Assembly (NCBI RefSeq): GCF_965363235.1
Contig: NC_134850.1
Span: forward strand, 30,282,102 to 30,346,101
Source: Mytilus galloprovincialis
Lineage: Eukaryota > Mollusca > Bivalvia > Mytilida > Mytilidae
DNA: 64,000 nt
Direction: 5' to 3'
Numbering within the stretch: the first letter of the stretch is position 1; each line of letters starts with the position of its first letter. Both the position numbers and the translations under genes were made by a program. Shown here piece after piece: positions 39,784-59,410 of the stretch. The notes below the pieces were generated by a model. It was not told the origin of the DNA and did not search any database. It saw only the letters and a program-made list of their open reading frames with translations.

Positions 39784-42142
39784 AAAAGCATTGGTTTATA
39801 AAAATAAGAAGATGTGGTATGATTGCAAACAAGGCATTGGTTTATAAAAATAAGAAGATGTGGTATGATTGCAAACAAGGCATTGCTTTATAAAAATAAG
39901 AAGATGTGGTATGATTGCAAACAAGGCATTGCTTTATAAAAAAAAGAAGATATGGTATGATTGCAAACAAGGCATTGCTTTATAAAAATAAGAAGATGTG
40001 GTATGATTGCAAACAAGGCATTGCTTTATAAAAATAAGAAGATGTGGTATGATTGCAAACAAGGCATTGCTTTATAAAAATAAGAAGATGTGGTATGATT
40101 GCAAACAAGGCATTGCTTTAGAAAAATAAGATGTGGTATGATTGCAAACAAGGCATTGCTTGCTTTATAAGAATAAGAAGATGTGGTATAATTGCAAACA
40201 AGGCATTGCTTTATAAAAATAAGAAGATGTGGTATGATTGCAAACAAGGCATTGCTTTATAAAAATAAGAAGATGTGGTATGATTGCAAACAAGGCATTG
40301 CTTTATAAAAATAAGAAGATGTGGTATGATTGCAAACAAGGCATTGCTTTATAAAAATAAGAAGATGTGGTATGATTGCAAACAAGGCATTGCTTTAGAA
40401 AAATAAGATGTGGTATGATTGCAAACAAGGCATTGCTTGCTTTATAAGAATAAGAAGATGTGGTATAATTGCAAACAAGGCATTGCTTTATAAAAATAAG
40501 AAGATGTGGTATGATTGCAAACAAGGCATTGCTTTAGAAAAATAAGATGTGGTATGATTGCAAACAAGGCATTGCTTGCTTTATAAGAATAAGAAGATGT
40601 GGTATAATTGCAAACAAGGCATTGCTTTATAAAAATAAGAAGATGTGGTATGATTGCAAACAAGGCATTGCTTTATAAAAATAAGAAGATGTGGTATGAT
40701 TGCAAACAAGGCATTGCTTTATAAAAATAAGAAGATGTGGTATGATTGCAAACAAGGCATTGCTTTAGAAAAATAAGATGTGGTATGATTGCAAACAAGG
40801 CATTGCTTGCTTTATAAGAATAAGAAGATGTGGTATAATTGCAAACAAGGCATTGCTTTATAAAAATAAGAAGATGTGGTATGATTGCAAACAAGGCATT
40901 GCTTTATAAAAATAAGAAGATGTGGTATGATTGCAAACAAGGCATTGCTTTATAAAAATAAGAAGATGTGGTATGATTGCAAACAAGGCATTGCTTTATA
41001 AAAATAAGAAGATGTGGTATGATTGCAAACAAGGCATTGCTTTAGAAAAATAAGATGTGGTATGATTGCAAACAAGGCATTGCTTGCTTTATAAGAATAA
41101 GAAGATGTGGTATAATTGCAAACAAGGCATTGCTTTATAAAAATAAGAAGATGTGGTATGATTGCAAACAAGGCATTGCTTTAGAAAAATAAGATGTGGT
41201 ATGATTGCAAACAAGGCATTGCTTGCTTTATAAGAATAAGAAGATGTGGTATAATTGCAAACAAGGCATTGCTTTATAAAAATAAGAAGATGTGGTATGA
41301 TTGCAAACAAGGCATTGCTTTATAAAAATAAGAAGATGTGGTATGATTGCAAACAAGGCATTGCTTTAGAAAAATAAGATGTGGTATGATTGCAAACAAG
41401 GCATTGCTTGCTTTATAAGAATAAGAAGATGTGGTATAATTGCAAACAAGGCATTGCTTTATAAAAATAAGAAGATGTGGTATGATTGCAAACAAGGCAT
41501 TGCTTTATAAAAATAAGAAGATGTGGTATGATTGCAAACAAGGCATTGCTTTATAAAAATAAGAAGATGTGGTATGATTGCAAACAAGGCATTGCTTTAG
41601 AAAAATAAGATGTGGTATGATTGCAAACAAGGCATTGCTTGCTTTATAAGAATAAGAAGATGTGGTATAATTGCAAACAAGGCATTGCTTTATAAAAATA
41701 AGAAGATGTGGTATGATTGCAAACAAGGCATTGCTTTAGAAAAATAAGATGTGGTATGATTGCAAACAAGGCATTGCTTGCTTTATAAGAATAAGAAGAT
41801 GTGGTATAATTGCAAACAAGGCATTGCTTTATAAAAATAAGAAGATGTGGTATGATTGCAAACAAGGCATTGCTTTATAAAAATAAGAAGATGTGGTATG
41901 ATTGCAAACAAGGCATTGCTTTAGAAAAATAAGATGTGGTATGATTGCAAACAAGGCATTGCTTGCTTTATAAGAATAAGAAGATGTGGTATAATTGCAA
42001 ACAAGGCATTGCTTTATAAAAATAAGAAGATGTGGTATGATTGCAAACAAGGCATTGCTTTATAAAAATAAGAAGATGTGGTATGATTGCAAACAAGGCA
42101 TTGCTTTATAAAAATAAGAAGATGTGGTATGATTGTAAACAA
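39784..42142 (+). repeat. Hierarchical minisatellite, ~50 monomers of 43/46/50 bp
   Basis: There are three monomer types. A (46 bp) has 'gctttataaaaataagaaga'. B (43 bp) has 'gctttagaaaaataagatg'. C (50 bp) has 'gcttgctttataagaataag'. All share 'tgtggtat(g/a)attgcaaac'. B is always followed by C, and BC blocks are separated by one to four A monomers. From about 40117 the A counts between the ten BC blocks read 4,1,3,4,1,2,3,1,2. Before that, A-type monomers run from 39784. Repeated minus-strand frames of 73 codons are by-products of the period. The monomer resembles the first 30 bases of family A repeats. Confidence 0.95.
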
Positions 42143-42144
42143 GT

Positions 42145-43095
42145 TTGTGTATGTTTATGTGACGAACTGATTGTCATACATTAGTTTAAACTTTTAACAA
42201 GTCTAAATAATAATATACAATTATTTTGTATTCATTAAGATTGGTTGTGAAAAGAGTCCAATTGGAAAAATATTCCATCTCATTTTTCTCTATGTCACGT
42301 GATAAACGAATTTCGGATGTTCGCTCCTCTTGTTTTTGAATTTTTGCCAGATATCGGAATCCTCTGGTTTTATCCATGTACATGTAGTGGCATTAAAAAA
42401 TCCCCTCTAACCCCTCCTTTTCTTTTGATAATTTTTTTACATCTATTTTTTTTAAAAGCCACACATGAAAATCCTATAAACTCTTTGTTATTTTTAAATA
42501 TTTTTTTTTAAAGAAAAAGGGTTCTAATTTTCAATGGCTTATATCTCGAACATCCTTAAACAAGAAAAATGTATCAAATTTCTTACAGCACAGGTCTATC
42601 CACAATTTTTCTTTTATGAAAAATACGAATTATGAAATGTAAAATGTTATTTTAGGATTATAATTGGTTCTTTTCAACTCAAACAGTTTAAGAAATACAA
42701 TCATTTGAATGATAGAAAGTGATGACAGGATGGACAAGACAGAAATTGCTACGTACGACTCATCGATGAAGCTCCTTTAAAAACAATGTAAAGCCGAATC
42801 AACAACAATGTTGAAAAACAATAAAAGCCGAAAAGTTCGAACAAATGTTGCTTAATAGGTTTTCATGTTAGGGGTAGAGAGTTTTCAATAGTTTTCAACA
42901 TTTTATGAACAGTTCTCAGAAATACATGTTTTGAAACATTTGATTCTAAAGGAAAATATGTGTTTAAAAAAATGCCAACAACGTAAAATAAAGAACTTTT
43001 CATGAGAACATGAAGAAGACTCGAAGACGAAGATTTTAAAATCAAAAACCATCAGCAACAAAATCAAAAGGTCTACAGAAAAATAGCCAAATAGT
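42145..43095. other. Intergenic, nothing recognised
   Basis: AT-rich flank of the minisatellite. Short ORFs on both strands lack recognisable features. Confidence 0.4.
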
Positions 43096-44265: not shown

Positions 44266-44452
44266 ATGGCTGGTCGTAACAGAGTGATTCCTGTGGAATC
44301 GATAAAGAATCGAAAATCTCCAGGCACTAAGTTACATCGTTCTAATAGTCTTTCTTCAACGCTATCGTTATCACCTACAGAACTGAATGAAGCTATAATG
44401 GGAATGCTAACTGTTGGTAAACGACTAGAGCCTTGCAAAAGAGTATGCATTG
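44266..44452 (+). CDS. NIT guanylate cyclase, exon 1 (cytosolic N-terminus)
   Basis: The ATG lies six bases after an acceptor (tttttacag, ending 44259). It encodes a Ser/Arg-rich segment ending 'KRVCI' and stops at G|GTATGT in phase 1. The earlier in-frame open sequence back to 44200 has no ATG and is intronic. Confidence 0.8.
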
Positions 44453-47400
44453 GTATGTCATTGCTAAAGTTTAACTTCTTAAGCATATACCAGTATTTAT
44501 CAATCTTTTGCTTTCATTTTGTTTTTTATTTATGCGTTCAAGGTGAAGTTGAATTCAGAAAAAAGCATATCCACGTTTTAATCTTTTCTTCATAACTCAA
44601 AGATTGTTTTCTTGGGCTCGTAGCTGATTCAATTCCTCCTATTATATGTATGATACGCAAAATGTTTTACTATGTACCAACATAGAGTCAAGTGAATAAA
44701 CACCAATTTCATCTGCTTCTTTCTTATTTAACACATGAAAACCCAACGTTACCCTACAAAGAAAAACAGGCGAAAAAAGTAAATTAACAAAAATACCGAA
44801 CTCCGAGGAAAATTCAAAACAGAAGGTTCCTAATCAAATGCCGAAATCAAAGATCAAACACATCAAACGAATGAATAACAACTGTCATATTCCTAAATCG
44901 GTACAGGCATTTTCTTATGTAGACGGACACCAAAGGACATTTGAACTTAAGTCGAAAATAAACTGACAAATCCATGGCAAAAAAAAGAGAAAAATAACCA
45001 TCAGTACAAAAACGCAGTAGTATATCAGTCAAAGAGTTGTAACATATTTTGATGTGTAAAATATCAATGTGTGGATACGACCGTCTGGTTTGTTGACAAA
45101 ACTTCCTATCTGCAAGATACTTCATCAAAATGCTAATATATATAATGTAATGTGTGACAATCCAAGATGAAACTGATGAGGACAGTAAGCAATCAATTTA
45201 AAGAACAGTAGGAATGATTTAAAAGTTGTCATGGATACAATGCAGACTCATTTTCTACGATGTTAATGGAGTATCAAAAATAGAGGAATGACCTAACAAC
45301 TCTACTAATCAACAAATATATTTGTGTTGATCATATTTCAGACAAAGGTTATATTTATACAAGGCATGTGAAATTTAAGGAATACACCTATACGTTTTAA
45401 AAATTGTTTATAGACAATCGATATACGAAAATTTGGTATAAGTGTCAATGAGACAACTCTCCATGCAAGTCACAATTTGTAAAAGTAAGCCATTATATGT
45501 CAAAGGACGGTCTTCAACCCATTGACTTAGCTTAAGGTGGCTGCTGGGTACAAAAATTTCAGCAAAAAATTGAACCTTTATTTTTTCATTACTAATTTTA
45601 TTTATTACACTATTAGTTATTACTTTATGATATGGTACAAAAATCAACCCAAAAAATTCATTCAGTTTGGCCCCAGATGACTTTTAAAATGTTTATATCA
45701 TTGAAAAAGCTCCAAATTATCTCCCTATAGTGCAAAAATGCCATGTTTTGGCATTAAATTTGAAATATCTTTTTTAACTCATCGGTGACCTATATTTTTT
45801 ATTATTTTTTCAAATAAGCTGTACATAAACTAAATAATTGTAAAATTTAAGCGATTTCTGTAATTAGGTTATTTTTTTATTTCGATATTACATCTATTTC
45901 TCCTATTAGTTCAATAGAAAAAAAGGACATTAACAAAAATGTATGCTTCTTTCAGAGGCAGATTGTGAGCTTAACTGAACGGTGACCCAACTTTTTTATT
46001 TCATTTTTCTTTTAAGTATATGATAAAGTTCATTTATGAAAAAATATAGCGAAATCCTATATTAGAACAAAAAAATTATTTATACCCAGGAGCCCCCTTA
46101 AAACATTGTTATGTTATTAAACGTTAAATCATAATCAGGAGTATGCTTTCCTAATTGTAGGCAATCCAATAACAACAGCTGGTCAAAGAAAACAACTTGT
46201 AAAGATGTTGACTGTTGTTTTATTCCCGCTGGCCGTTTTAACAGCAATCACTGCAGTCGATTTCTCTAACTCTCTATCAATGTATATGAATACAGCTGAG
46301 GTGATGATGCGGATTGAATTCGGTGTAGAACTCGGAGATTTCCTCATGGCTCTCCAAAATGAACGTGATATGAGTTCGTTGTATTTAAGTAGGATTGGTT
46401 CCGATACTAAATCAGATTTATTACAAGCATACCCTCAGACAGACGAGGCTTTAGATAAGTTATCATCGTGGCCAGTTAGTTCAAGCAACAAGTTAAAGGA
46501 ATTCCAGTCACGTGAATGGTATATTAACTTTATAAATAGACATCGTTATGAACTAGACTCAACAAACACCAGCGTGACTGCCGAAATTAACTTTTATTCT
46601 AATCACATCGATATATTCATACGCTGGATGTATGAAGCGGTCAGCGAGCTGAACACAGGATTGATTTGGAAGACATTGGTAGGATATCAAGAACTTATAA
46701 TCTCTAGTGAATATATTGGTCGAGAACGAGGCTACGGTATTTATTATTACTCGGTCGGTTCATTCCGTGATAGATCTCATTATATACTTTTTATTGAAAG
46801 CCAAGATACGGCTAGAGCACATTTCGAATCTGCAAGAATGTACTCAGAAACGGCATCAGACATATATCAAAAGAACCTCGACACAAACAACGAAACTCTA
46901 CAAGAGATCAATAAATTGAGGAACGAAATAAAAATTAATTCGTCGCTTGTACAAGAGGGTTCTACATCTGCAGCAAAATGGTGGTTTTCAAACATGAGCA
47001 TTTATCGTGATGTCATGCGAAATACTCAAAGACTACTGACATCAAAAATAAATAGACTACTTGAACAGAATGCAGCCATTGATATGACAAACATGATTAT
47101 TGCAGCAGCCATCTTTTTAGGAATAATACTGGTCAGTCCAACCATTACTTTCTCGGTATACAAGCTGACGTCTAATATTCAGAAATACTCATTGCAGATT
47201 GCAAGGAAGTAAGTAACATTATAAATATATATAAGTTTAAAGACTTTTTTATATGCCGATGACTGTTCGTACAATGTAGATATAGTATTTGATACAACAA
47301 TGATATTTGTAGTTGGGGGTTGAGATCCATAAAAAATGCGACTTTCTCACGTTAAATGTTTAAGTCTTGAACATTGACAATTCTTGTCGTGTGACATGGC

Positions 47401-50400
47401 TTAATATTTCTTGTTATTTGTAACAGTTGGTGGGGGTAATTTATCTTCGGTTGATTAATTCATGTACATCGGTTTAAAAATAAACTCATGTCGATTCGGA
47501 AGAACCGACTACAGAGTTGGAGCGACGATATACAAATGAAAATAACTATGTCAGACAAGTTACGTCCCCCAAAACATTTATTGACATTTGTCTGTTTTGA
47601 GCATATATCGTTTTTTTCTCAATTGCATACAACCATATTAAAACTGATGCGACTCTTGGGATTCAACAGTTATACAATTAAGAATCCTTGTACCATACAG
47701 CGTTAAACACGATAAACGCAGCTTTACAAATTTCCAAAATATTGTAGCATCATATGGCAATACTTATTTTAAAAACAAGCTTCAAATGAAAATCTGGAGT
47801 CTCGCTGATATTCAAAACTTATATAATAAAATGAAATAAGACATCATAGTCTTTGCCAAGAAAACATTTTACGGAATTATGACTAATGTAATGCATAAAT
47901 ACGTTGGGTCTGTCTTTACGTATTTGTGACTTTCGGTTGGGGAATCGTTTAAGTATTACCTAAGTTAGATGAGAAGACAATAATATGAAACTTACTTGAC
48001 AAGAACGTTTAGCCTGTTCAAAAAGGGGGAGAAGACAACGCCTCGGAAATCTGACATCATAAGTTTAAGGAAATCATCAAAACTCGCAACATCATTTTAG
48101 AGGACAGCAAATTTAATCTGTTTGCAAACTACCTACTAGATTGAATAAATTTAGATGTAATTAGCAATAATACGTCACAGTACAGTAATCAACAATGCTA
48201 AACTCGTGCAGTATGTTCAGCTATAAAAAAAAAGGCCGACAGATTCCCAACGCGTTTATGACAGGGCTACTTGTTTATAGTTACCTCAGATCTAGAAATG
48301 CCAAAAGACTAAACATTGACAAGTGCAAAAACAATCTAGAAAATACCATTTTTATTCATAATTACATAAGACAAAAATAAATAAAAGTTCAGATATTTCA
48401 TTAGCAGGAAAAATGCTAGTTAAGAGTTATATGTGTAGTAAACATATTAACAGTATTGTTTCTACTGACCAATACAGAAAAAGATTACTAAATCTTCAAT
48501 TTGAAACATGTTATAAAATCAACAAATAACATTGTTATATTATAGTTCGTTTTTGTGTGTGTTACAATTTAACGTTGCGTCGTTTGTTTTCTCTTATTTT
48601 TGAGTGTAAATTGACATTGCGATAAGACGTGTCACGGTACTTGTCTATCCCAAATTCATGTATTTGGTTTTGATGTTATATTTGTTATTCTCGTGGGATT
48701 TTGTCTGATGCTTGGTCCGTTTCTGTGTGTGTTACATTGTAGTGTTGTGTCGTTGTTCTCCTCTTATATTTAATGCATTTCCCTCAGTTTTAGTTTGTTA
48801 CCTCGATTTTGTTTTTTGTCCATGGATTTATGAGTTTTGAACAGCGGTATACTACTGTTGCCTTTCTTTATAAAAAAGCATTATTTTATTTCTAGGACTA
48901 AAGCATTGAACAAGGAGAAAAAACAGAGTGAAGCGATTCTGTTCCAGATGTTACCTAAGTCTGTTGCACAACACCTGAAAGAAAATAATACCGTCAATGC
49001 CGAACAATTCCAAGAATGCACCATTCTACAGAGTGATATGGTTGGCTTTACCAAGTTGTCGTCCAATAGTTCGCCATTACAAGTGACTGAAATGTTGAAT
49101 ATCCTCTTTTCCTGCTTTGATAACAGAATTAATTTGTATGATGTGTACAAAGTAGAGACGGTAGGAGACGGCTATTTGGTTGTATCAGGTAATGCTTTCA
49201 AAAAAATCATGTTAGCGTGAAAAAAGTAAAATGCCAAAGATAAGGAACTCCGATAAAAATTCTCAAAGCCGTGTTTTCCTAATTAAGCTTTAAATATTTA
49301 GTCAGAAAATGCTATTCATCCTTGAAACTCCATTCACGACTTTAGTTACTTTTAATTTTGTTCATTTGCTCATACATATAATCATATTGTTAATTTGTTG
49401 GTCTATTTTTTAGTAATCCATATGACTATTGTTTAAATAGCTTTGTTTTAATCATAAGAAATCATATTTAATAACAAAATTTTCAAACTTGTTACTCACT
49501 TTAAAGGTCTCTTTCGGTCCTGTTCCTCTTCGCTTACTCCACTACGTAAATAGCAGTGGCTGATATATGGACTTTCCTGATAAAGATAGATAATAAAACG
49601 GTTTTGAGGCAACCAATTAAAACAAAATTTAATAGGAACAGAAACCTCAAAATTAGCTACCACAGTTCAAGCATATACATTGTAGTCTGACTTCGTTTAT
49701 AATTCGCGTGATTCGTATTAATTATTCCTTCTTTTTATTCAAATACCTTGCGATATTTCAAAGGACCATGATGAAATACGATCTTTATATGTTAGCAAAT
49801 GAAATAACTGCCTAAATCTCTATGACCTCTTTTGGTTATCATGTAAACCAGTCTGAGTTGACTAATTTTGCTATCCAAGCAAAACTAGACAACAAGTTGC
49901 AATTAAAACCATATTTGTAAGGAAAACAAAACAATTTTTGTACATGAATTTGGCCGTTAGTTTTATCGTTTGAATAGTTTTACATTTGTCGTTTTGGGGT
50001 CTTCTATAGCTGACTTTACTGTACGGACTTACTTAGCTCATTGTTGAAGGCCGTACGGTCAACTAAAGTTGTTTATTTCGGTGTCATTTTGATTCTTGTT
50101 GAGAGTTGTCTCATTGGCAATCATACCACACCTTCAAAAGATCATACTAAAACAGATTCTCACCAGTGGCAATCCCCGCCGGCGTATTGATTATGCAAAA
50201 TATACATTTTTTTTATTATTGATTTATCTTCACTATTAATTTACTCGATGATTGTAGGTGTGCCTAGAAGAAACCACCACAGACACGCGTCTGAAATTGC
50301 AACTCTATCGTTGGATTTATTGCATCACGTGACCAGACTTGAACTTCCTCAATTTCCTGGCGAGAAATTCAAAATAAGAGTCGGCTGTCATTCAGGTAAC

Positions 50401-53400
50401 GATTAAAAATCAGATATCGATTAACCTTGCCTTTATAATATGTAAGAATATGTTCCAAGAGTGCAAAATATTTTTATAGATGTCGCTTTCATCATTATCT
50501 ATTTATCATGTGATACTTCTAATACACCTTAAAGCTAAAGTTCCAAGCAAGAACTGAATCTCATTAATTCGGCAATCCTCCGGGAAAGTGCGGAGAGCCG
50601 ACAACCTTGCTTTTCGCTATTTGTTCGCCGTTGCAAACGTCCCAGAAGTCAATAGTTCAAGTATCACAATTTCTGGATTCATTTTGACAGTAAGGTCTAT
50701 ACTAAGTATTTATGGTCAAATAGTTATATCTTAAATCTTGGGTTATTAAGATTGAGTACATATTATGATTATGTCTTTTCAAACAGGGATTTTCTACTTT
50801 AAAAATACGGAGTTAGTATTCTGTTTATAAGTTTATTGATATTTTAGTAATTTTTATACTATTGATACTCTGTATAGGGTAAATGAGGTGATTAATCTAA
50901 TTTGTTTAGGGGTCGTAGGGTTATAAATTGGATTTAACATCTCTATTCTGACCGAATGTGTTCGCATATCTATGCATCCAACACAGCAATATGACGCACC
51001 CCATTGTCAATGGTTTTTCTGTCGATTTGAAGCAGACCAATGTGGCCATACTTCTGTATTTACAAAATATCATCAGATAACCATGATACTTTATACCATT
51101 CCAGATTTTTAGGTAACATCCTTAATTATAACCTTATATATATATATATGTATATGCTACATTTTCGCTTAAAATTTTATATCAAAATTATTACGCTTGA
51201 AGGTTCGGTTTGATGATTTTGATAGGGGTTGTGTTATATATAACAGATTACGCAAAAAATTATGTGGTCAAAAACATTTACATAGACAATACCTGTTTAG
51301 TGTCTTTAAATATCAGCTGTATTTGTACGAGGCTACGAAACAAGGTGTATGCGAGCTTTTAGCAAGCTACTACACCTGTTTCGAGCCGAGTACAAATACA
51401 GCTGATATTTAAAGACACTAAACAGTTATTGTCTTTATCCTGCCATTAATTCTGTATATTATTTGTGTTTTAAAAGACACAGAAACACATGTTTCGCATT
51501 TATTTTTGATTTGAAATCTCTTGAGGCCCACGACAGTAATCACACATTCAGCTGAAGACGGGTTCGCAAAAAAAGAATCTCGAATGGTGAACAATAATAC
51601 ATCGCTCAAAGTGAATAATTATCTATTTCAACATAACAACTAATTTCAACAGTAAAAACAAATAACAAAACATTGTTCAATTTGAAACAGGGGTGTACGA
51701 GTTGCCCTACGCTTCAGACTCGACATTCACTAAACATGTCTGCTGAAATTGGCATGGTTAGTTTTGTTACACAATCATAAACATTCAAGTTTTTGTATCG
51801 ATAGTTGTCATCGTAGAAAAGACTGCTGTTTATTTGTGCATGTTGTGTGTGTTATCAGAAAATTGGTGTGATTATTATTGCTCTAAAGAAATGTTATAAA
51901 CCGTATACAAGAAATCGTTAATTCACAACTGATACGTCGTTGGAATGCGATTGCAATACACATTCTGAGGTCACGCGGGTTCATACAATACCGAGTCCGA
52001 CAGTGGGCGGAGCTTTAAAGCGATATCTGTATAGTATACAGATACAGCATAGCGATATCTGTAGGGCTATATCTGTATAGTAGAACACCCAATTGCAGGA
52101 TAAATTATTTTATGCTAAAAACATATTAATTGTGAAAAACATTGTATATTTATTTTTTGGGGCGATCAAAGGTAACGTAATTCATCTACTCCTCCTGGAT
52201 CCGTCACTGCACTTGAATGAATATGTTTTACATATATTGTCATCATTAAACCTCAAACCGTATGCATATATTTACTTTATAGGTCCTGTTGTAGCAGGAG
52301 TCGTTGGGAATAAGAATCCTAGGTATTGTTTGTTTGGATCAACAGTACGTGTTGCTGCCATAATGGAATCATCAGCTGAAGGTATATATACTTACAAACT
52401 TTAAAAAAAAATGTTTTAATTAACTATGTGTGCTACATCACGAAACTATCGATTCAAACTACATGTAAAAAAGAAGATGTGGTAGGATTACCAATTAAAC
52501 AACTCTATATAGATATAGGATGATGTAGTGTAAATGCTAATAAGACAATTTCCAAGTCACATTTGGATGAAAAGTTGTCTTATTAGTATTTACACTACAT
52601 CATCCTAAATCTATATAGAGTTGTTCATGCAATACCCAGTCCGACAGTGGGCGGAGCATTTAGGCGATATCTGTATAGTATACAGATGCAGCATAGCGAT
52701 ATCTGTAGGGCTATATCTGTATAGTAGAACACCCAATTGAAGGATAAATTAGTTTATGCTAAAAACATGATAATTGTGAAAAACATTGTATATTTATTTT
52801 TTGTGGCGATCAAAGGTAACGTAATTCATCTACTCCTCCTGGATCCGCCACTGCACTTGAATGAATATGTTTTACATATATTGTCATCATTAAACCTCAA
52901 ACCGTATGCATATATTTACTTTATAGGTCCTGTTGTCCGGTCGAACTTGTTATATTCAATGCTCAATACCTAAAATATTTTGAAAACACATTCATTCGTT
53001 AAATTCATTTATACCTTTATAGATATAGGAAGATGTGGTGTGAGTGCCAATGAGACAACTCTCTATCCAAATAACAATTTATAAAAGTAAACCATTATAG
53101 GTCAATGTACGGCCTTCAACACGGAGCCTTGGCTCAGACCAAACAACAAGCTATAAAGGGCCTCAAAATTGCTAGTGTAAAACCATTCAAACGGGAAAAC
53201 CAACGGTCTAATCTACATGTATAAATTACATAAACAAACGACAACTACTGTACATCAGATTCCTGACTTAGGACAGGTGCAAACATTTGCAGCGGGATTA
53301 AACGTTTTAATAGTACCAAACCTTCTCCTTTGTTCTGAAACAATAGCATAACATCACAACATTAAAAACACACGATAAAATATCAATTGGCAGGTTTAAC

Positions 53401-56400
53401 TCTATCAAAAAACATAAATTATGCATATTTTAGTTAATAAGATTCAAATCAGTCAGTCCACATTCACATTGCTGCATGAAATGGGTGGATTTGAGATGAG
53501 ACCGAGAGATGTTCCTAAAGTTACGGTAAGATTTTACCTTGTATTGGACGGATAATTTTAGTTATCGCTATTTTACGAAATTTTTCTTTGAACTTACTGA
53601 CTAAAAATTGCCTTCCTCTAATATCTGTGCTGTTTTCACACTTCTTGAGCAGTGCGAGAAAAATATTTCTCCTCACTAGTAAAAACATCTATCGGCAAAT
53701 GATTGGTAGAAATTTAATTTTGACGTTATATTTTCTTGTTTTTTTTTTCTCAAAATTTTCCTATTTTGACGTCATGAAAAAATTCGGCTATGCCTGTTGA
53801 CGTCACATAAAAATTACACAACTATCACCAAATCTTAAAAAAAAAAAAGGATAAAAATCATAAAATAAACAGATTCCACCACTATAACTACGAGTTTTAC
53901 GATACGTCTCCACTCTCAACAGTTAAATTTTAATACGTTAAAAAGATCTGCAAGCCTCACGCTTAAAATATCAAAAGTTAACTGTCTCGAGTGGAGAAAT
54001 ATCGTAATACACTTGTTGCAGTTGTGGAATCTATATTTCTCAGCAAAGTAGAATAATATGAAAAATTATCGCTAGAAACAAAGGCCCACATTGCGTTGTC
54101 AATAAAATAAACAACGTAGTCATGGTAAAATAGCGATAAACAGATTAGCATTGGTTATCTCATACGTACCGGCTCAAGCGAGAAAATCCAACAATAAACT
54201 ATAAATACATCACTTGCAAAAATGAACACGAAGAGTGCTCAAAAGAAAATGGCATGGTTAGATAGTAACAACAGGGCCGTAACTACCTATGAGGCAGGGG
54301 AGGCAGTTAATTTTCTACACCAAATTTTTTTTTTGGAAGTAATAAAATGAAATTTTGACATTATGTACACCAAGAACTTGAATTTATATAATAAACAACA
54401 CAAGTTTACAGTTTTAACAGTGTTATCATGATACGTGATATATGTGTCATTTTCCGGATTTTTGATCGAAAGTGAACCGTTACAGTATTTATATTTTGGG
54501 GTTTTTTTGTGTGGCCGTCCGTCTGTTATTCAGTATTCGTACGAAAACACATATGAAACTTTGCTTTCGACAATTTTGAATAAAGCTATTTATTTAGGGA
54601 CTCAATTAAGCAGAGGAAGTTCCCTTTGAATTGTGAATATTTTATGATATCAGGAATTCGTTACCGGCTGAATCAGCTGTTTTAACCGCTTCTCTTGATC
54701 GTACGAGAACATTATGGTTAATGCCTTAGTAGTTCACCCCCATTCGTTGTAGCAGGGACTTTCTATACTAAGTATATACTTGAATGTATTTAAAGTCCCT
54801 GTTTTTAGTTATATACATGTCTTTTCAGCTTTCAACTATATTGAAATTCAAGGTCCTCGATAAAAAAAATTATCTTGCGTTCCATGATCTTAGTTGCTTT
54901 ATATGTTTTTTTAACTTACCAGTTTGATTTCTAATAAAAATATCTTTAAATACAGGTAATAATTGTTTGCATAAAAAATGCTTCAAGGATCCAGCATTAC
55001 TGATATTTCTTAAAGTAAGGAAATCGAAGAAAAACGGGTCATTTATAGCCATATTGAGAAAAAAATCCATGGTCACAATGTATTTAATGTTAATAATTAT
55101 TGGCCACATAACAGCATTTAAGAAGGAGCCTTGGCTCACCCCAAACAGCAATCTCAGCTTGTTTTTGCATAAAAATTGTTTCCAACTTCAAGCAATACTG
55201 ATGTCTCTTAGAGTAAGGAAATCGAAGGAAAACGGGCAATTTTTAGCCATTTTACCACCCAACCCCCTCTCTTGGGGCCTCACTCAGTCGGCGGCCCCAA
55301 ATCCCTGCCTCCCCTGAATTAGAACACTAGTTACGGCCCTGGTCAATACTATTACCATTCCATTCGTCGCTTTATGCCTTGAAAATTGAATAATTCATAT
55401 ATGATTTGCATATTATGTAATACGTATGATTGGTCGAGAAGACTTCCTGTAGTTGATTTCGACGTTGGTTATTTTTCGATAGACGACGTTGACCGAACTT
55501 TTTTTCGTAACCAAAGTAAACAAGATGGCGGCGATAATAATACAGACGTTAACAAAATTTATTTCACTGCACTTTAATTGTTAAATAAGATAACAAAAAA
55601 ACAAAAAGATTCGTTTGAATGATAATAAGAATTTTTGTAGTTTATTTTAATCAGATTGCAAATTTCAAGGAGTACATATCTTTGCCTAAGCCAACAAATA
55701 AATTCATGCGCCAGGCCTATTCAATGACACACATATACAACTTACGCAGGATAGAGGTAACGAGTGTGGAAACATATTTTCCCTATTTCCAGTTTTAAAG
55801 AATTATAAGGATTAAACGCCTTTTTAAAGGAATTCCTTTAAAAAGGCGTTTAATTCTATAATAATGGCTTTTCATTTGAGAACTACAAACTGATGTAAGT
55901 GTACCAACAAGATTTCTTTCATTGAAGGATTTTCTATTTTTGTGCCCCGTGTATGGGGATTTTGTTTTTAGGCCTGTGCGTCTGTCCCGCTACAGGTTAA
56001 AGTTGAACTTCAATTAACTAGAAACTTAATACACAAGTTTCCAATGATGTGATCTTTCTAATTAATATGCCAATTTTACGGTCTACTGAACATACAAATG
56101 AGAGTTTGATTGGGGCTTCCTTGTTCTATGGACACATTATTGTTTCGAAGGTAATCGGTAGTTTACAAATGATTTTTTTTTAAAGCAAACCTGAAATCCG
56201 ATGGTTGAAAACAGCATTTGATTATATAATACATGACATTTCGGTATGGGCTGTGCTCATTGTTGAAAGCCGTACGGTGACCTATGGTTGTTAATTTCTG
56301 TGTTATTTGGTCTCTTGTGGAGAGTTGTCTCATTGACATTCATACCATGATGGAATAATGATTATTATATAATTCTACACACTAAGCATAATTCAAAATG

Positions 56401-56584
56401 CAATATTTTATTCGTTTTTAGTGTTAAGATCAAGGTAATTTGTTTGTTTCAGGTTGGAGTTGAACTTAGGAAGCACGGTTCCTCTGAAAGGACATTCTGG
56501 TTACTAAAGAAGGAACTTATTGAATGGGAAGAAGAATTCTGCTCATCCCCATCCGATGGGGCATCATTGGGGAGTTCTTTGTGA
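44266..56584 (+). CDS. NIT-domain transmembrane guanylate cyclase (seven coding exons)
   Basis: Seven exons (44266-44452, 46161-47208, 48896-49188, 50258-50395, 52283-52381, 53434-53525, 56453-56584) join with matching phases and GT/AG borders into 662 residues. Residues 1-77 are cytosolic and basic. TM1 is ~78-97. The extracellular NIT domain is ~100-350 and includes '[13 protein letters not shown]' and 'GRERGYG'. TM2 is ~374-397, then a linker helix ('[10 protein letters not shown]') and a class III cyclase domain ~450-640. Asp459 ('SDMVGFT') and Asp503 ('VETVGDGY') bind metal. Glu499 and Cys571 ('YCLFG') select guanine. The usual N-T-A-S-R-M is replaced by R-V-A-A-I-M (578-583), so the catalytic Asn and Arg are missing. 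NIT-type guanylate cyclases are known in marine invertebrates (for example NIT-GCs in the annelid Platynereis) and are linked to nitric-oxide or nitrite signalling. This member may be inactive alone or work in a heterodimer. Confidence 0.9.
44785..45015 (+). repeat. Family C copy plus Penelope 3' tail fragment, in intron 1
   Basis: Family C phrases 'ccgaactccgaggaaaattc' and 'aacgaatgaataacaactgt' run to about 44930. The next 75 bases ('aaactgacaaatccatggca') look like a reversed fragment of the Penelope tail. Confidence 0.6.
45410..45535 (+). repeat. Family A 5' fragment, in intron 1
   Basis: Contains 'agtgtcaatgagacaactct' and 'ccattatatgtcaaaggacg'. It is truncated by the TTAA element that starts at 45536. 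Confidence 0.65.
45536..46097. mobile_element. piggyBac-type MITE with TTAA target sites, in intron 1
   Basis: TTAA lies at 45532-45535 and at 46098-46101. The ends are GGTGGCTGCTGGGTACAAA and, in reverse complement, GGGGGCTCCTGGGTATAAAT. At 562 bp it is non-coding. It ends about 60 bases before cyclase exon 2. Confidence 0.8.
46161..47208 (+). CDS. NIT guanylate cyclase, exon 2 (TM1, NIT domain, TM2)
   Basis: Acceptor ctaattgtag ends at 46160. The exon completes the split Gly codon and encodes '[20 protein letters not shown]' onward. It ends at AA|GTAAGT (phase 2) after 'KYSLQIAR'. It carries the entire sensor region in one exon. Confidence 0.9.
48530..48868 (+). repeat. Dispersed repeat family D, ending ~28 bases before cyclase exon 3
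   Basis: Contains 'gtgttgtgtcgttgttctcc', 'tgcatttccctcagttttag', 'tggatttatgagttttgaac' and 'gtatactactgttgccttt'. Its 3' boundary lies within the branch-point distance of the acceptor at 48895. Confidence 0.7.
48896..49188 (+). CDS. NIT guanylate cyclase, exon 3 (linker helix, metal and guanine residues)
   Basis: Acceptor ttatttctag ends at 48895. The exon encodes '[20 protein letters not shown]' onward, including 'SDMVGFT' and 'KVETVGDGY', and ends TCA G|GTAATG in phase 1. The dimer-forming linker helix and both metal Asp residues are here. Confidence 0.9.
49935..50150 (-). repeat. Dispersed repeat family A, in intron 3
   Basis: Plus-strand 'ggccgttagttttatcgttt', 'gttgaaggccgtacggtcaa' and 'ctcattggcaatcataccac' give a minus-strand family A copy. 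It ends about 110 bases before exon 4. Confidence 0.7.
50258..50395 (+). CDS. NIT guanylate cyclase, exon 4
   Basis: Acceptor gatgattgtag ends at 50257. The exon encodes '[20 protein letters not shown]' to '[10 protein letters not shown]', the class III segment that normally reads as GLP-(K/R)-N...R-(I/V)-G-(I/C)-H-S-G. It ends TCAG|GTAAC in phase 1. Confidence 0.9.
51282..51435. repeat. Near-perfect foldback (~150 bp), in intron 4
   Basis: The left arm 'agacaata(c)ctgtttagtg' plus 'tctttaaatatcagctgtat' and 'ttgtac' is mirrored on the right by 'gtacaaatacagctgat', 'atttaaagacactaaacag' and 'ttattgtct'. The inner part ('cgaaacaaggtgta'/'tacacctgtttcg') also pairs, leaving a loop of only a few bases around 51360. 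It could be a MITE or an inverted duplication. Confidence 0.75.
51980..52292 (+). repeat. 313-bp duplication, copy 1 (includes start of exon 5)
   Basis: Runs from 'ttcatacaataccgagtccg' to 'aggtcctgttgt' and is almost identical to 52624-52936. It covers the intron end, the acceptor and the first ten bases of exon 5. Confidence 0.9.
52283..52381 (+). CDS. NIT guanylate cyclase, exon 5 (altered catalytic segment)
   Basis: Acceptor tactttatag ends at 52282. It encodes '[20 protein letters not shown]', then '[13 protein letters not shown]', and ends G|GTATAT in phase 1. In active cyclases this segment reads G-D-T-V-N-T-A-S-R-M. Here GD is GS, the Asn is Arg578 and the Arg is Ile582, while the guanine-selecting Cys571 is kept. 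Confidence 0.9.
52500..52623. repeat. Foldback made of two head-to-head family A 5' ends
   Basis: 'caactctatatagatatagg' plus 'atgatgtagtgtaaatgcta' is mirrored by 'tagtatttacactacatcat' and 'cctaaatctatatagagttg'. Each arm resembles the family A start. Its right end coincides with the left border of duplication copy 2 (52624). Confidence 0.8.
52624..52936 (+). repeat. 313-bp duplication, copy 2 (partial exon 5)
   Basis: Diverged from copy 1 at only a few positions. It keeps the acceptor (ending 52926) and the codons for G-P-V-V, then breaks off into unrelated sequence. Read from the acceptor it meets a stop after about 15 codons, at TAA near 52971. Confidence 0.85.
53020..53407 (+). repeat. 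Dispersed repeat family A, ending ~26 bases before exon 6
   Basis: Near-full copy of the longer subtype (compare 32540-32965), from 'tagatataggaagatgtggt' to 'aatatcaattggcaggttta'. It sits directly against the acceptor zone of cyclase exon 6. Confidence 0.8.
53434..53525 (+). CDS. NIT guanylate cyclase, exon 6
   Basis: Acceptor gcatattttag ends at 53433. It encodes '[20 protein letters not shown]' to 'RPRDVPKVT', equivalent to the I-x-V/I-S...L segment after the catalytic loop. It ends ACG|GTAAGA in phase 0. Confidence 0.85.
53745..54045. mobile_element. Foldback/MITE-like repeat, copy 2, in intron 6
   Basis: Same plan as 25062-25395: 'acagattccaccac', 'ccactctcaacagttaaa', then 'ttaactgtctcgagtggaga', 'atatcgtaatacac' and 'gttgtggaatct'. 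Confidence 0.65.
54272..55341. mobile_element. Non-autonomous DNA transposon with CAGGGCCGTAACTA ends, in intron 6
   Basis: The left end CAGGGCCGTAACTA and right end TAGTTACGGCCCTG are perfect inverted repeats, followed inward by 'tgaggcaggggaggc' and 'gcctcccctgaa'. CAGGG ends suggest hAT, though the 8-bp flanks (AGTAACAA / GTCAATAC) match only loosely. The interior has two tandem ~225-bp segments ('aaggaaatcgaag(a/g)aaaac'), which explains the 116-codon frame at 54967-55317. No transposase is seen. Confidence 0.75.
55390..55540 (-). repeat. Dispersed repeat, inverted partner of 8.2-8.4 kb
   Basis: 'gattggtcgagaagacttcc' and 'gatagacgacgttgaccgaa' are the reverse complement of the 8.2 kb copy. 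The frame at 55386-55577 lies in it and is not credited. Confidence 0.55.
55811..55854. repeat. Perfect 44-bp palindrome
   Basis: 'attaaacgcctttttaaagg' + AATT + 'cctttaaaaaggcgtttaat' reads identically on both strands, centred on GAATTC, with no spacer and no mismatch. It lies in intron 6. Confidence 0.95.
56245..56350 (-). repeat. Dispersed repeat family A 5' fragment, ~100 bases before exon 7
   Basis: Plus-strand 'tgctcattgttgaaagccgt', 'gttaatttctgtgttatttg' and 'gagttgtctcattgacattc' give a minus-strand family A fragment. Confidence 0.7.
56453..56584 (+). CDS. NIT guanylate cyclase, exon 7 (C-terminus)
   Basis: Acceptor gtttgtttcag ends at 56452. It encodes '[20 protein letters not shown]' then an acidic tail 'ELIEWEEEF', ending at TGA 56582-56584. 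'TFWLLKK' corresponds to the T-Y-W-L-x-G-(K/R) end of animal cyclase domains. Confidence 0.85.
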   Translation, partial: VGVELRKHGSSERTFWLLKKELIEWEEEFCSSPSDGASLGSSL

Positions 56585-57413: not shown

Positions 57414-59410
57414 TGAGATCTGATATCACCCCTAGTTATTTTGGTGGCGTTTGTGTTGTTTATTCTTTAGTTTTCTATGTTGTGTCGTGTGTGCTGTTGC
57501 TTGTTTGTCTTTTTCATTTTTAGCCATGGCGTTGTCAGTTTGTTTTAGATTGATGCGTCCCTCTTATATAACCATTGTAATTTTTCTGAAAAAACGGTTG
57601 GTTCAAAATTTTGAAATTTTTATATTTTTGTTAAAGGGTCAAATAACATACATTTAAAAAATTTTATGTAAATTAAACGAAACTAATTAATTGTAGTGTA
57701 AGTGTTGGGTACCACCTTGATGTAAGTAATATATCTCATTAACGTATATAACGTATAAAATAGTTGCCATGGTGATGGATATTGCTAACGATAGATTATT
57801 CAGAACCGTTTTTGTACATTCGGAGGAACTGCAAAAACGTTCATTCTTCAATTTGAAGTTTACAAACAAGGGTATTGATGCTATAAATATAAGTAATATT
57901 CTTAAAAGAGTAAAAGGCAACATTCCTTCTTCCTTTAAGGATCACTCTTCTCCTATAGTATCGTATTCCTACAATAAACCTGTTGCATCTAAAATTTTCA
58001 ATCACAAAAAAGTGTTACAAAATCTAAATATTGATGACCTCAAAGCTAAACCACTTGATTGTGCCTGTTCACATTCCCATTTCGTGTAAAATCCTCCTGG
58101 CCATGTAATTTCTGGAGACCTAAACATAGTCAATAACTACAAGTTCAGACAACTTTTGTCCAAGGGTCCGAAATACAGAGAGCCTCAGCCAATCAATTGG
58201 AAGCAGAACTTTAAACTACTAATGGATTATGTTGAGGGTTATGCAAAAGACTGGACAAAAAGAGAAAAGGTTGAGGTTGACACTCTTTCGGAGTGGGTAA
58301 AATCAGTGAGGTCATTGCTTCAGATAAGAGTAAGTAAGCTTAAAGGGTCAATGAGCACCAAAGCTCCTTCTATCTTTAAAGACACTCAGGTCATAGAGGA
58401 GTTGTCTTACCTCCATAACAAATATGTTGTCGTTCCAGCTGACAAAGCCTCAAACAATATTGTTTTTGTTTGCAAGAAACACTACATTGACTGCCTGATG
58501 AAGGAACTCGGGATAAATAACAAACTTGGAAATCCTACATATACACTAAGTACGCTTACGAAGCTGGAGATCCTGGAAAACCAGTAATCGGTTCTAATCT
58601 CCTTTGGTGTTAATTCAAAGGATGAAGACAAGGATCTGTAGGTTTGGTCTTCAAACAGACTATTGGAATCCCAATGAGTACCAATTGCACTCCTCTACTT
58701 GCAGATTTGTTTTAGTATTCATATGAAGCAGAATTTATCTAAGGGCCTGTACAGAAAGGAGAAAAGAAATTAGCCTAGTCTTTTAATTCCACCTTTTGGT
58801 ATATTGAGGATGTGCTGTCTCTTAATAATAATAGATTCAGTGATCACTTAGTACATTTAATATATCTAAGTGAACTTGAAATTAAAGATACTATTGACAC
58901 AGATAAATCTGCTTCATATTTAGACCTTTTTCTCGAAATGACTACTGATGGTAGATTGAATACCAAAATTTATGACAAACGCGATGATTTTAATTTTCCT
59001 ATTGTCAACTTTCAATTTCTGTTTAGCAACATCCCAGCGGCACCAGAATACTGAGTATATGTGTCTCAATTGATACGTCACTCTACAGCTAGCTCAAAGT
59101 ACGTTGATTTTGTTGAACGAGAAATACTGCTTTCTCAAAAGTTGCAAAGACAGGGCTATGAATCAATCAAATTAAGATCATCACTCAAGAAATTTTACGG
59201 TCGCCATCATGAGCTGATTGGCCATTATTACAAAAGTGTGTCAGAAATCATATCTGATATTCTTCCTCAGTCATAATAACCTTCCATCATTACCGAACTG
59301 AACAAAGAAATAATACGACGGGTGCCGTATACGGTGCAGGAAATGCTTACCCTTACGGAGCACCTGATTTCACTCCCGGTTTTTAGTGGAGTTTGTGTTG
59401 TTTCTTATTA
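57414..59410 (+). mobile_element. Penelope-like element, nearly full length, broken
   Basis: Order: a copy of the 3' tail (57414-57570) acting as an upstream pseudo-LTR; an N-terminal region (57769-58089, 'SSPIVSYSYNKPVASKIFNH'); a middle region (58150-58590, 'PINWKQNFKLLMDYVEGYAK', 'PADKASNNIVFV'); an RT core ('FKQTIGIPM' with 'TPLLADLF' near 58650, 'YIEDVLSLNNN' near 58800); a post-RT segment ('DDFNFPIVNF', 'SQLIRHST', 'LIGHYYKSVSEI') ending at 59276; then a tail (59285-59405). No GIY-YIG endonuclease is visible. The reading frame is broken in several places. The tail-coding-tail layout is the tandem arrangement typical of Penelope-like elements. Moderately old. Confidence 0.85.

What the first reader, a model, noticed from the sequence alone, without database searches (positions are those of the whole stretch)
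52283..52381. Membrane guanylate cyclase that keeps metal and guanine residues but has lost the catalytic Asn and Arg
Seen: the seven exons join in frame with matching phases. Exon 5 reads [16 protein letters not shown] where active class III cyclases read G-D-T-V-N-T-A-S-R-M-E-S. Known: in class III cyclases the Asn and Arg of that motif stabilise the transition state, while two Asp bind metal and a Glu/Cys pair selects guanine; soluble guanylate cyclase splits these roles between two subunits. Inference: Asp459, Asp503, Glu499 and Cys571 remain, so this protein could supply only the metal-binding face of a heterodimer, or be a nucleotide-binding pseudo-enzyme regulating a partner. An NIT sensor on a half-catalytic cyclase would be an unusual receptor design.
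Basis: partly seen in the sequence, partly recalled or inferred. Interest (0 to 1): 0.75.

Follow-up and report, generated by a model that had tools for sequence, protein, structure and literature searches.

The report
Half-site nitrate-sensor guanylate cyclases
A bivalve-like genome carries a family of membrane enzymes for making the messenger cGMP that keep the metal-holding half of the active site but have lost the other half, so each probably works only when paired with an intact relative.

Summary
Seven exons (44266-56584, +) join with GT-AG sites and matching phases into a 662-residue membrane NIT-guanylate cyclase. Exon 5 (52283-52381) reads RVAAIM where active cyclases read N-x3-R. It is not an oddity of one locus: eight paralogues in the same genome, down to 59% identity in the catalytic domain, also lack both Asn and Arg, and all nine keep both metal Asp, Arg550, Glu499 and Cys571. 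Of 48 catalytic-domain positions invariant in nine intact cyclases, only three are changed in all nine: V453, N578, R582. The nine plus one decayed gene group together (UFBoot 97; 98 without the motif). Synonymous sites are saturated in 7 of 8 comparisons with the window gene while the domain stays conserved, so this is not fresh decay. The same pattern marks soluble guanylate cyclase alpha and an adenylyl cyclase C1 half. Best reading: dedicated metal-face subunits that complete one active site with an intact cyclase, like sGC alpha and C. elegans ODR-1/DAF-11. The partner is not identified and the pairing is inferred. No mirror-image (Asp-less) NIT partner was found among 11 examined. No transcript or other-species test was possible.

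The parts
44266..44452 (+). exon 1: start codon and N-terminal segment
   Evidence: reading frame, GT donor; phase fits exon 2
46161..47208 (+). exon 2: first membrane helix (about 75-97), NIT domain (125-359), second membrane helix (about 369-398), start of linker helix
   Evidence: Pfam NIT 89.6 bits; hydropathy peaks 2.16 and 2.40
48896..49188 (+). exon 3: linker helix and catalytic domain with metal Asp459, Glu499, Asp503
50258..50395 (+). exon 4: catalytic domain, A-face Arg550 (KIRVG)
52283..52381 (+). exon 5: Cys571 and helix alpha-4 with Asn->Arg578 and Arg->Ile582
   Evidence: 99 nt also in the nine paralogues listed
53434..53525 (+). exon 6: end of catalytic core
56453..56584 (+). 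exon 7: C-terminus and stop
51979..52278 (+). intron-4 repeat ending just before exon 5; 96% copy at 52623-52922
52623..52936 (+). downstream copy of that repeat, carrying the acceptor and only the first 10 nt of exon 5; not a usable second exon 5

Best explanation
The product is a two-helix membrane receptor with a NIT sensor between the membrane helices and a class III cyclase domain after the second. It belongs to a group of NIT cyclases specialised as the metal-donating half of a heterodimer. Class III active sites lie between two domains: one supplies two metal-binding Asp and a triphosphate Arg, the other supplies Asn and Arg. A homodimer of this protein would have two sites without Asn/Arg and should be inactive. 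Paired with a cyclase that has N-x3-R (most likely one of the intact NIT cyclases), it would form one live site and one dead nucleotide pocket, as in sGC. Shown here: residue loss and retention, fixation across the group, conservation. Inferred: pairing, partner, cGMP output, ligand (nitrate, nitrite or NO) and nucleotide binding in the dead pocket.
For: Nine of 15 NIT cyclase genes with an unsplit NIT exon lack both Asn and Arg; all nine keep D459, D503, R550, E499, C571. Of 48 columns invariant in nine intact cyclases (seven NIT cyclases of this genome, ANPR1, GC-C), 33 are unchanged in all nine and only V453, N578, R582 are changed in all nine; three random columns would include both N and R with probability 0.0027. 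The nine plus L024 are split from all other sequences in the tree with 97.3/97, and 96.6/98 with columns 572-586 removed. Conservation: in the catalytic domain, synonymous divergence from the window gene is undefined (saturated) for 7 of 8 N/R-less paralogues with dN 0.15-0.33; omega is 0.106 for the eighth, L019. Exons 3-5 are 293, 138 and 99 nt in the window gene and the nine paralogues. The same pattern stands in sGC alpha-1 (6jt0_A: both Asp kept, NNVTLANKFES), in this genome's sGC alpha exons (L084 with the first Asp, L040 with NNVTLANKFE) and in an adenylyl cyclase C1-type domain of this genome (L001: FADIVGF, LGDCYY, DVTLANTME). Possible partners with N-x3-R are plentiful: 41 of 53 distinct GC-type helix-4 sequences read, NIT and other cyclases together.
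Against: No partner, transcript, protein or activity data. No NIT cyclase read here shows the reciprocal loss (Asp lost, N/R kept) that sGC beta shows (FSGIVGF, L092; NTVNITSR, L041); the partner would have to be a fully intact cyclase. One group member, L024, has decayed differently (D459->S, E499->Y, Asn kept, Arg->Lys). The B-face Lys of the last strand could not be judged: the exon-7 alignments of several paralogues are fragmentary, and the window gene, L019 and L017 have basic residues near its place. Conservation alone would also fit a regulatory pseudo-enzyme.
Confidence: 0.6

Rival explanations
1. A pseudo-enzyme: the protein pairs with an intact cyclase but contributes no working site; it lowers or gates the partner's activity (dominant-negative subunit or decoy sensor), binding nucleotide as a signal.
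For: N and R are lost in nine of nine; E and C are kept, so a nucleotide pocket may persist; L024 shows that the group tolerates loss of a metal Asp.
Against: Nine of nine keep the A-face (two Asp and Arg550), which a pure inhibitor would not need. The selective loss of N/R matches the known metal-donor halves.
Confidence: 0.25
2. An active homodimer with altered chemistry, Lys or Arg at the changed places standing in for the lost pair.
For: Five of the nine have Lys at the Arg place and five have Arg at the Asn place.
Against: The window gene and three others have Ile or Leu at the Arg place; sGC alpha-1 carries the same Lys, and in sGC the single active site takes residues from both subunits (PMC8196705 passage).
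Confidence: 0.05
3. A decaying gene: a dead duplicate on the way to becoming a pseudogene.
For: L024 in the same group shows wider decay; the family is tandemly duplicated; in the group L021, L022, L023, L025, L026 the catalytic domain is less conserved than the NIT exon.
Against: Open frame and canonical splice sites in the window gene; between the window gene and its older relatives the catalytic domain is better conserved than NIT (0.75 against 0.67 for L017, 0.69 against 0.45 for L031); dS saturated with low dN.
Confidence: 0.06
4. Assembly or exon-choice artefact: the true exon 5 encodes N-x3-R.
For: A 300-nt repeat next to exon 5 makes the place complex.
Against: No alternative N-x3-R exon found by pattern on the + strand of 50396-56452; the same kind of loss at eight further loci on two large contigs, C13 and C2.
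Confidence: 0.02

Closest known systems
Metazoan NIT-domain guanylate cyclases (placozoan NIT-GCs; Platynereis NIT-GC1/NIT-GC2)
   Same: NIT domain flanked by two membrane helices, C-terminal cyclase domain; reported from molluscs too (PMC7400543 passages; PMC10584369 passages).
   Different: The passages that I saw do not discuss loss of the Asn/Arg pair; here nine of 15 unsplit-NIT genes in one genome lack it.
Soluble guanylate cyclase alpha subunit
   Same: Both metal Asp, the Arg of the RIG strand, Glu and Cys kept; Asn->Thr and Arg->Lys (6jt0_A).
   Different: Different N-terminal domains (NIT, no heme-NO-binding domain match). In the unrooted tree sGC alpha-1 is separated from the NIT group by a moderately supported branch (89.5/78), so separate origin of the pattern is likely, not proven.
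C. elegans ODR-1/DAF-11 obligate heterodimeric receptor cyclase
   Same: Membrane cyclases whose two different subunits share one catalytic site (PMC5225109 passages).
   Different: No NIT domain in these as I recall; their residues were not compared here.
Transmembrane adenylyl cyclase C1/C2
   Same: C1-type domains lack the N/R pair (L001, L044, L046, L048, L053); L001 keeps both Asp motifs.
   Different: Both halves in one chain and substrate ATP (recalled).

Membership tests
NIT-domain guanylate cyclase | NIT domain (PF08376) flanked by two membrane helices, C-terminal class III cyclase domain | tested here: met
NIT-domain guanylate cyclase | two conserved arginines at the NIT bundle interface | tested here: met
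   R131 and R252 present in the window protein; R131 in 14 of 14 and R252 in 13 of 14 fetched unsplit paralogues (L031 has Leu at 252). That these are the ligand arginines is by motif, not by alignment to a bacterial NIT structure; phmmer of the exon against PDB gave 0 matches.
NIT-domain guanylate cyclase | response to nitrate, nitrite or NO | not testable with these tools
   needs protein
Catalytically complete class III cyclase (homodimer) | two metal Asp plus N-x3-R in the same chain | tested here: not met
   Asp459 and Asp503 present; R578/I582 in place of Asn/Arg
sGC alpha subunit | metal-donor pattern: Asp, Asp kept, N-x3-R lost | tested here: met
sGC alpha subunit | N-terminal heme-NO-binding-type (H-NOX) domain | tested here: not met
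   Pfam shows NIT and only a 46-residue match to the end of the HNOBA profile
sGC alpha subunit | common descent with sGC alpha within cyclases | tested here: inconclusive
   separated in the tree by a branch of 89.5/78 only
Obligate heterodimeric receptor cyclase (ODR-1/DAF-11 type) | shown to need a second, complementary subunit for activity | not testable with these tools
   no partner or activity data
Obligate heterodimeric receptor cyclase (ODR-1/DAF-11 type) | a NIT partner with the reciprocal loss (Asp lost, N/R kept) | tested here: inconclusive
   First Asp kept in 11 of 11 read: seven intact NIT cyclases and L080, L081, L083, L086 (taken as NIT cyclases from their place in the C13 clusters). 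The metal exons of L034, L036 and other split-NIT genes were not read.

The most novel reading that the evidence does not exclude
Within the NIT receptors this lineage has re-invented the alpha/beta division of labour: a nine-gene set of metal-only subunits, each able to pair with several intact NIT cyclases, giving a combinatorial set of one-site heterodimeric sensors for nitrogen oxides, each with a regulatory dead pocket that still recognises guanine.
Probability: 0.4. Interest if true: 0.7.

Novelty: new variant of a known kind. Interest (0 to 1): 0.55.

Why it matters
Animal NIT cyclases are candidate receptors for nitrate, nitrite and NO, separate from soluble guanylate cyclase, and are little studied. 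A conserved group with the sGC-alpha half-site pattern would be a further lineage, besides sGC/AC and the nematode receptors, in which a homodimeric cyclase became a split-site heterodimer. It makes a clear prediction (inactive alone, active in a pair, dependent on its own Asp residues) that one co-expression experiment can test.

Tried and rejected
Assembly or wrong-exon artefact: disfavoured. Fresh pseudogene: disfavoured. A reciprocal beta-type NIT partner: not found among the 11 metal exons read. ML omega by the iqtree codon model: no omega line was found in the report files, so only pairwise NG86 values are used, most with undefined dS. Comparison of the NIT exon with solved structures: 0 matches at E<=1. 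NCBIfam gave one match, far below its cut-off. Structure prediction was not run: the catalytic domain is spliced, so the DNA does not give it letter for letter. L032, L034 and L036 were left out of the residue table and trees because their spliced alignments were poor; their exon-5 letters are. The metal exon of L032 and the NIT parts of L033 and L035 were not used. Wrong-frame requests. The primary Platynereis paper is not held.

Papers: passages seen of PMC7400543, PMC10584369, PMC5225109, PMC2576301, PMC1435932, PMC1592074, PMC10073611, PMC8196705; all others in search listings only. That I know of no report of N/R-less NIT cyclases rests on searches of open-licence papers; the lists of 31 (20 of 66), (20 of 1,079; 12 of 17; 12 of 73) were cut.

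Full report
Observation. The gene lies at 44266-56584 on the + strand of the window, which is G000:C13:30282102-30346101 of an unnamed 1.38 Gb genome in 331 contigs; the eleven large contigs whose length I saw (C1-C9, C13, C14) are 73-133 Mb. Seven exons with GT-AG borders and matching phases give 662 residues. Pfam finds NIT at 125-359 and Guanylate_cyc at 445-636; hydropathy shows two membrane helices, about 75-97 and 369-398, on either side of NIT. D459, E499, D503 and C571 are in place; R578 and I582 stand where active cyclases have Asn and Arg.

Is it one locus or a family? The genome has 27 NIT-exon matches at E<=1 (only the best candidates are scored, so this is a lower bound). Fifteen are full-length, single-exon NIT domains including the window's, and I fetched the 14 others. 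A spliced aligner of my own read them. Nine of these 15 (window, L017, L019, L021, L022, L023, L025, L026, L031) have lost both Asn and Arg; one (L024) keeps Asn, has Lys for Arg and has lost D459 and E499; five (L018, L020, L027, L028, L029) are intact at these places. The split-NIT groups at C13:47.6 Mb and C13:69 Mb have NVASRM in each of the eight exon-5 sequences read (L033, L034 twice, L035, L036, L057, L061, L063).

Across the loci fetched before, 53 distinct GC-type helix-4 sequences matched my pattern: 41 have N-x3-R and 12 do not. The 12 are the nine, L024, the genome's own sGC alpha (L040, NNVTLANKFE) and one other gene (L047). Among 10 AC-type sequences, five have N and R (C2 type, by recall) and five have Thr at the Asn place (C1 type, by recall). 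This is a count of what was fetched and matched, not of every cyclase in the genome.

How selective is the loss? On an alignment of the nine with nine intact cyclases (seven NIT cyclases of this genome, ANPR1, GC-C), 48 columns are invariant in the intact set. The nine keep 33 of them without exception. Three columns are changed in all nine: V453, N578 and R582. Three random columns of 48 would include both catalytic ones with probability 0.0027. The window gene itself departs at eight of the 48; five of those eight are not shared by all nine. D459, D503, E499, R550 and C571 are unchanged in nine of nine.

Age and constraint. The nine plus L024 are split from all other sequences in the tree (SH-aLRT/UFBoot 97.3/97), also when columns 572-586 are removed (96.6/98); they are one clade unless the root of the tree lies inside them. 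Catalytic-domain identity to the window gene runs from 0.98 (L019) and 0.75 (L017) to 0.59 (L021); synonymous divergence in that domain is undefined (saturated) for seven of the eight N/R-less paralogues while dN is 0.15-0.33; for L019 omega is 0.106. For L017 and L031 the catalytic domain is better conserved than NIT; within the group L021, L022, L023, L025, L026 the reverse holds in all ten pairs, perhaps by gene conversion of the NIT exon. Exons 3, 4 and 5 are 293, 138 and 99 nt in the window gene and in nine paralogues. L019 is a tandem copy, 92.6-97.6% identical over the aligned stretches, exons included; I cannot exclude that it is a misplaced haplotype, so it should not count as strong independent evidence. 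The other seven do not depend on it.

Mechanism. In the Chlamydomonas cyclase structure the metal Asp pair and a triphosphate Arg come from one monomer and the ribose-orienting Asn and transition-state Arg from the other (PMC2576301, passage). sGC has one active site at the alpha/beta interface and a second, inactive pseudosymmetric nucleotide site (PMC8196705, passage). sGC alpha-1 in 6jt0_A keeps FSDIVGF, VETIGDAY and YCLFG and has NNVTLANKFES. In this genome the sGC alpha exons read FSDIVGF (L084) and NNVTLANKFE (L040), and those of sGC beta show the converse, FSGIVGF (L092) with NTVNITSR (L041); the second Asp of these two was not read. A C1-type adenylyl cyclase domain (L001) reads FADIVGF, LGDCYY and DVTLANTME. 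The NIT group therefore carries the metal-donor pattern. I conclude, with confidence 0.6, that its members act as metal-donating subunits of heterodimers. Shown: the pattern and its conservation. Inferred: pairing, partner, catalysis, ligand.

Against this reading: no reciprocal subunit was found among the NIT cyclases whose metal exon was read (first Asp kept in 11 of 11: L018, L020, L027, L028, L029, L033, L035, L080, L081, L083, L086), so partners would be complete cyclases; L024 shows that members can lose other residues; and a regulatory pseudo-enzyme would leave much the same trace. The retention of the A-face in nine genes is what tips the balance.

Known relatives. NIT-type animal cyclases were noted in insects and sea urchins in 2006 (PMC1592074, passage) and in 2020 in placozoans, molluscs and others (PMC7400543, passages); in Platynereis, NIT-GC1 is needed for NO feedback to photoreceptors (PMC10584369, passages). 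An obligate heterodimeric receptor cyclase, ODR-1/DAF-11, is known in C. elegans (PMC5225109, passages). Hence a new variant of a known kind. In ten searches of open-licence papers (listed under Tried and rejected, four of them with cut lists) I saw no report of Asn/Arg loss in NIT cyclases.

Noticed in passing
L094, L095, L047 (G000:C3:9412406-9414139): Another cyclase, not in the NIT group, keeps both Asp (CDIVHF, VESIGDAY) and lacks Asn/Arg (GETAVVASKMES); it also has Ile where the guanine Cys stands (PRYIVLG). That the three exons are one gene is by their closeness.
   Followed up: partly
L024 (G000:C13:43911500-43920200): A group member decayed the other way: D459->S, E499->Y, Asn kept, Arg->Lys.
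   Followed up: partly
window 51979-52278 and 52623-52936: A 300-nt repeat flanks exon 5; the downstream copy carries the acceptor and ten bases of exon 5; L019 as fetched holds only the one, true acceptor with these bases.
   Followed up: partly
L021, L022, L023, L025, L026: NIT exons are more alike (0.83-0.98) than the catalytic domains of the same genes (0.73-0.92), as gene conversion of the sensor exon would give.
   Followed up: no
window 57730-59276: Broken open frames that read like pieces of a reverse transcriptase (recalled resemblance, no search made).
   Followed up: no
window 40000-42150: Tandem array of a short AT-rich unit (about 40 bases), upstream of the gene; copies not counted.
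   Followed up: no
G000:C8:10285150-10321734: sGC alpha and sGC beta exons lie within 37 kb of each other on opposite strands.
   Followed up: no
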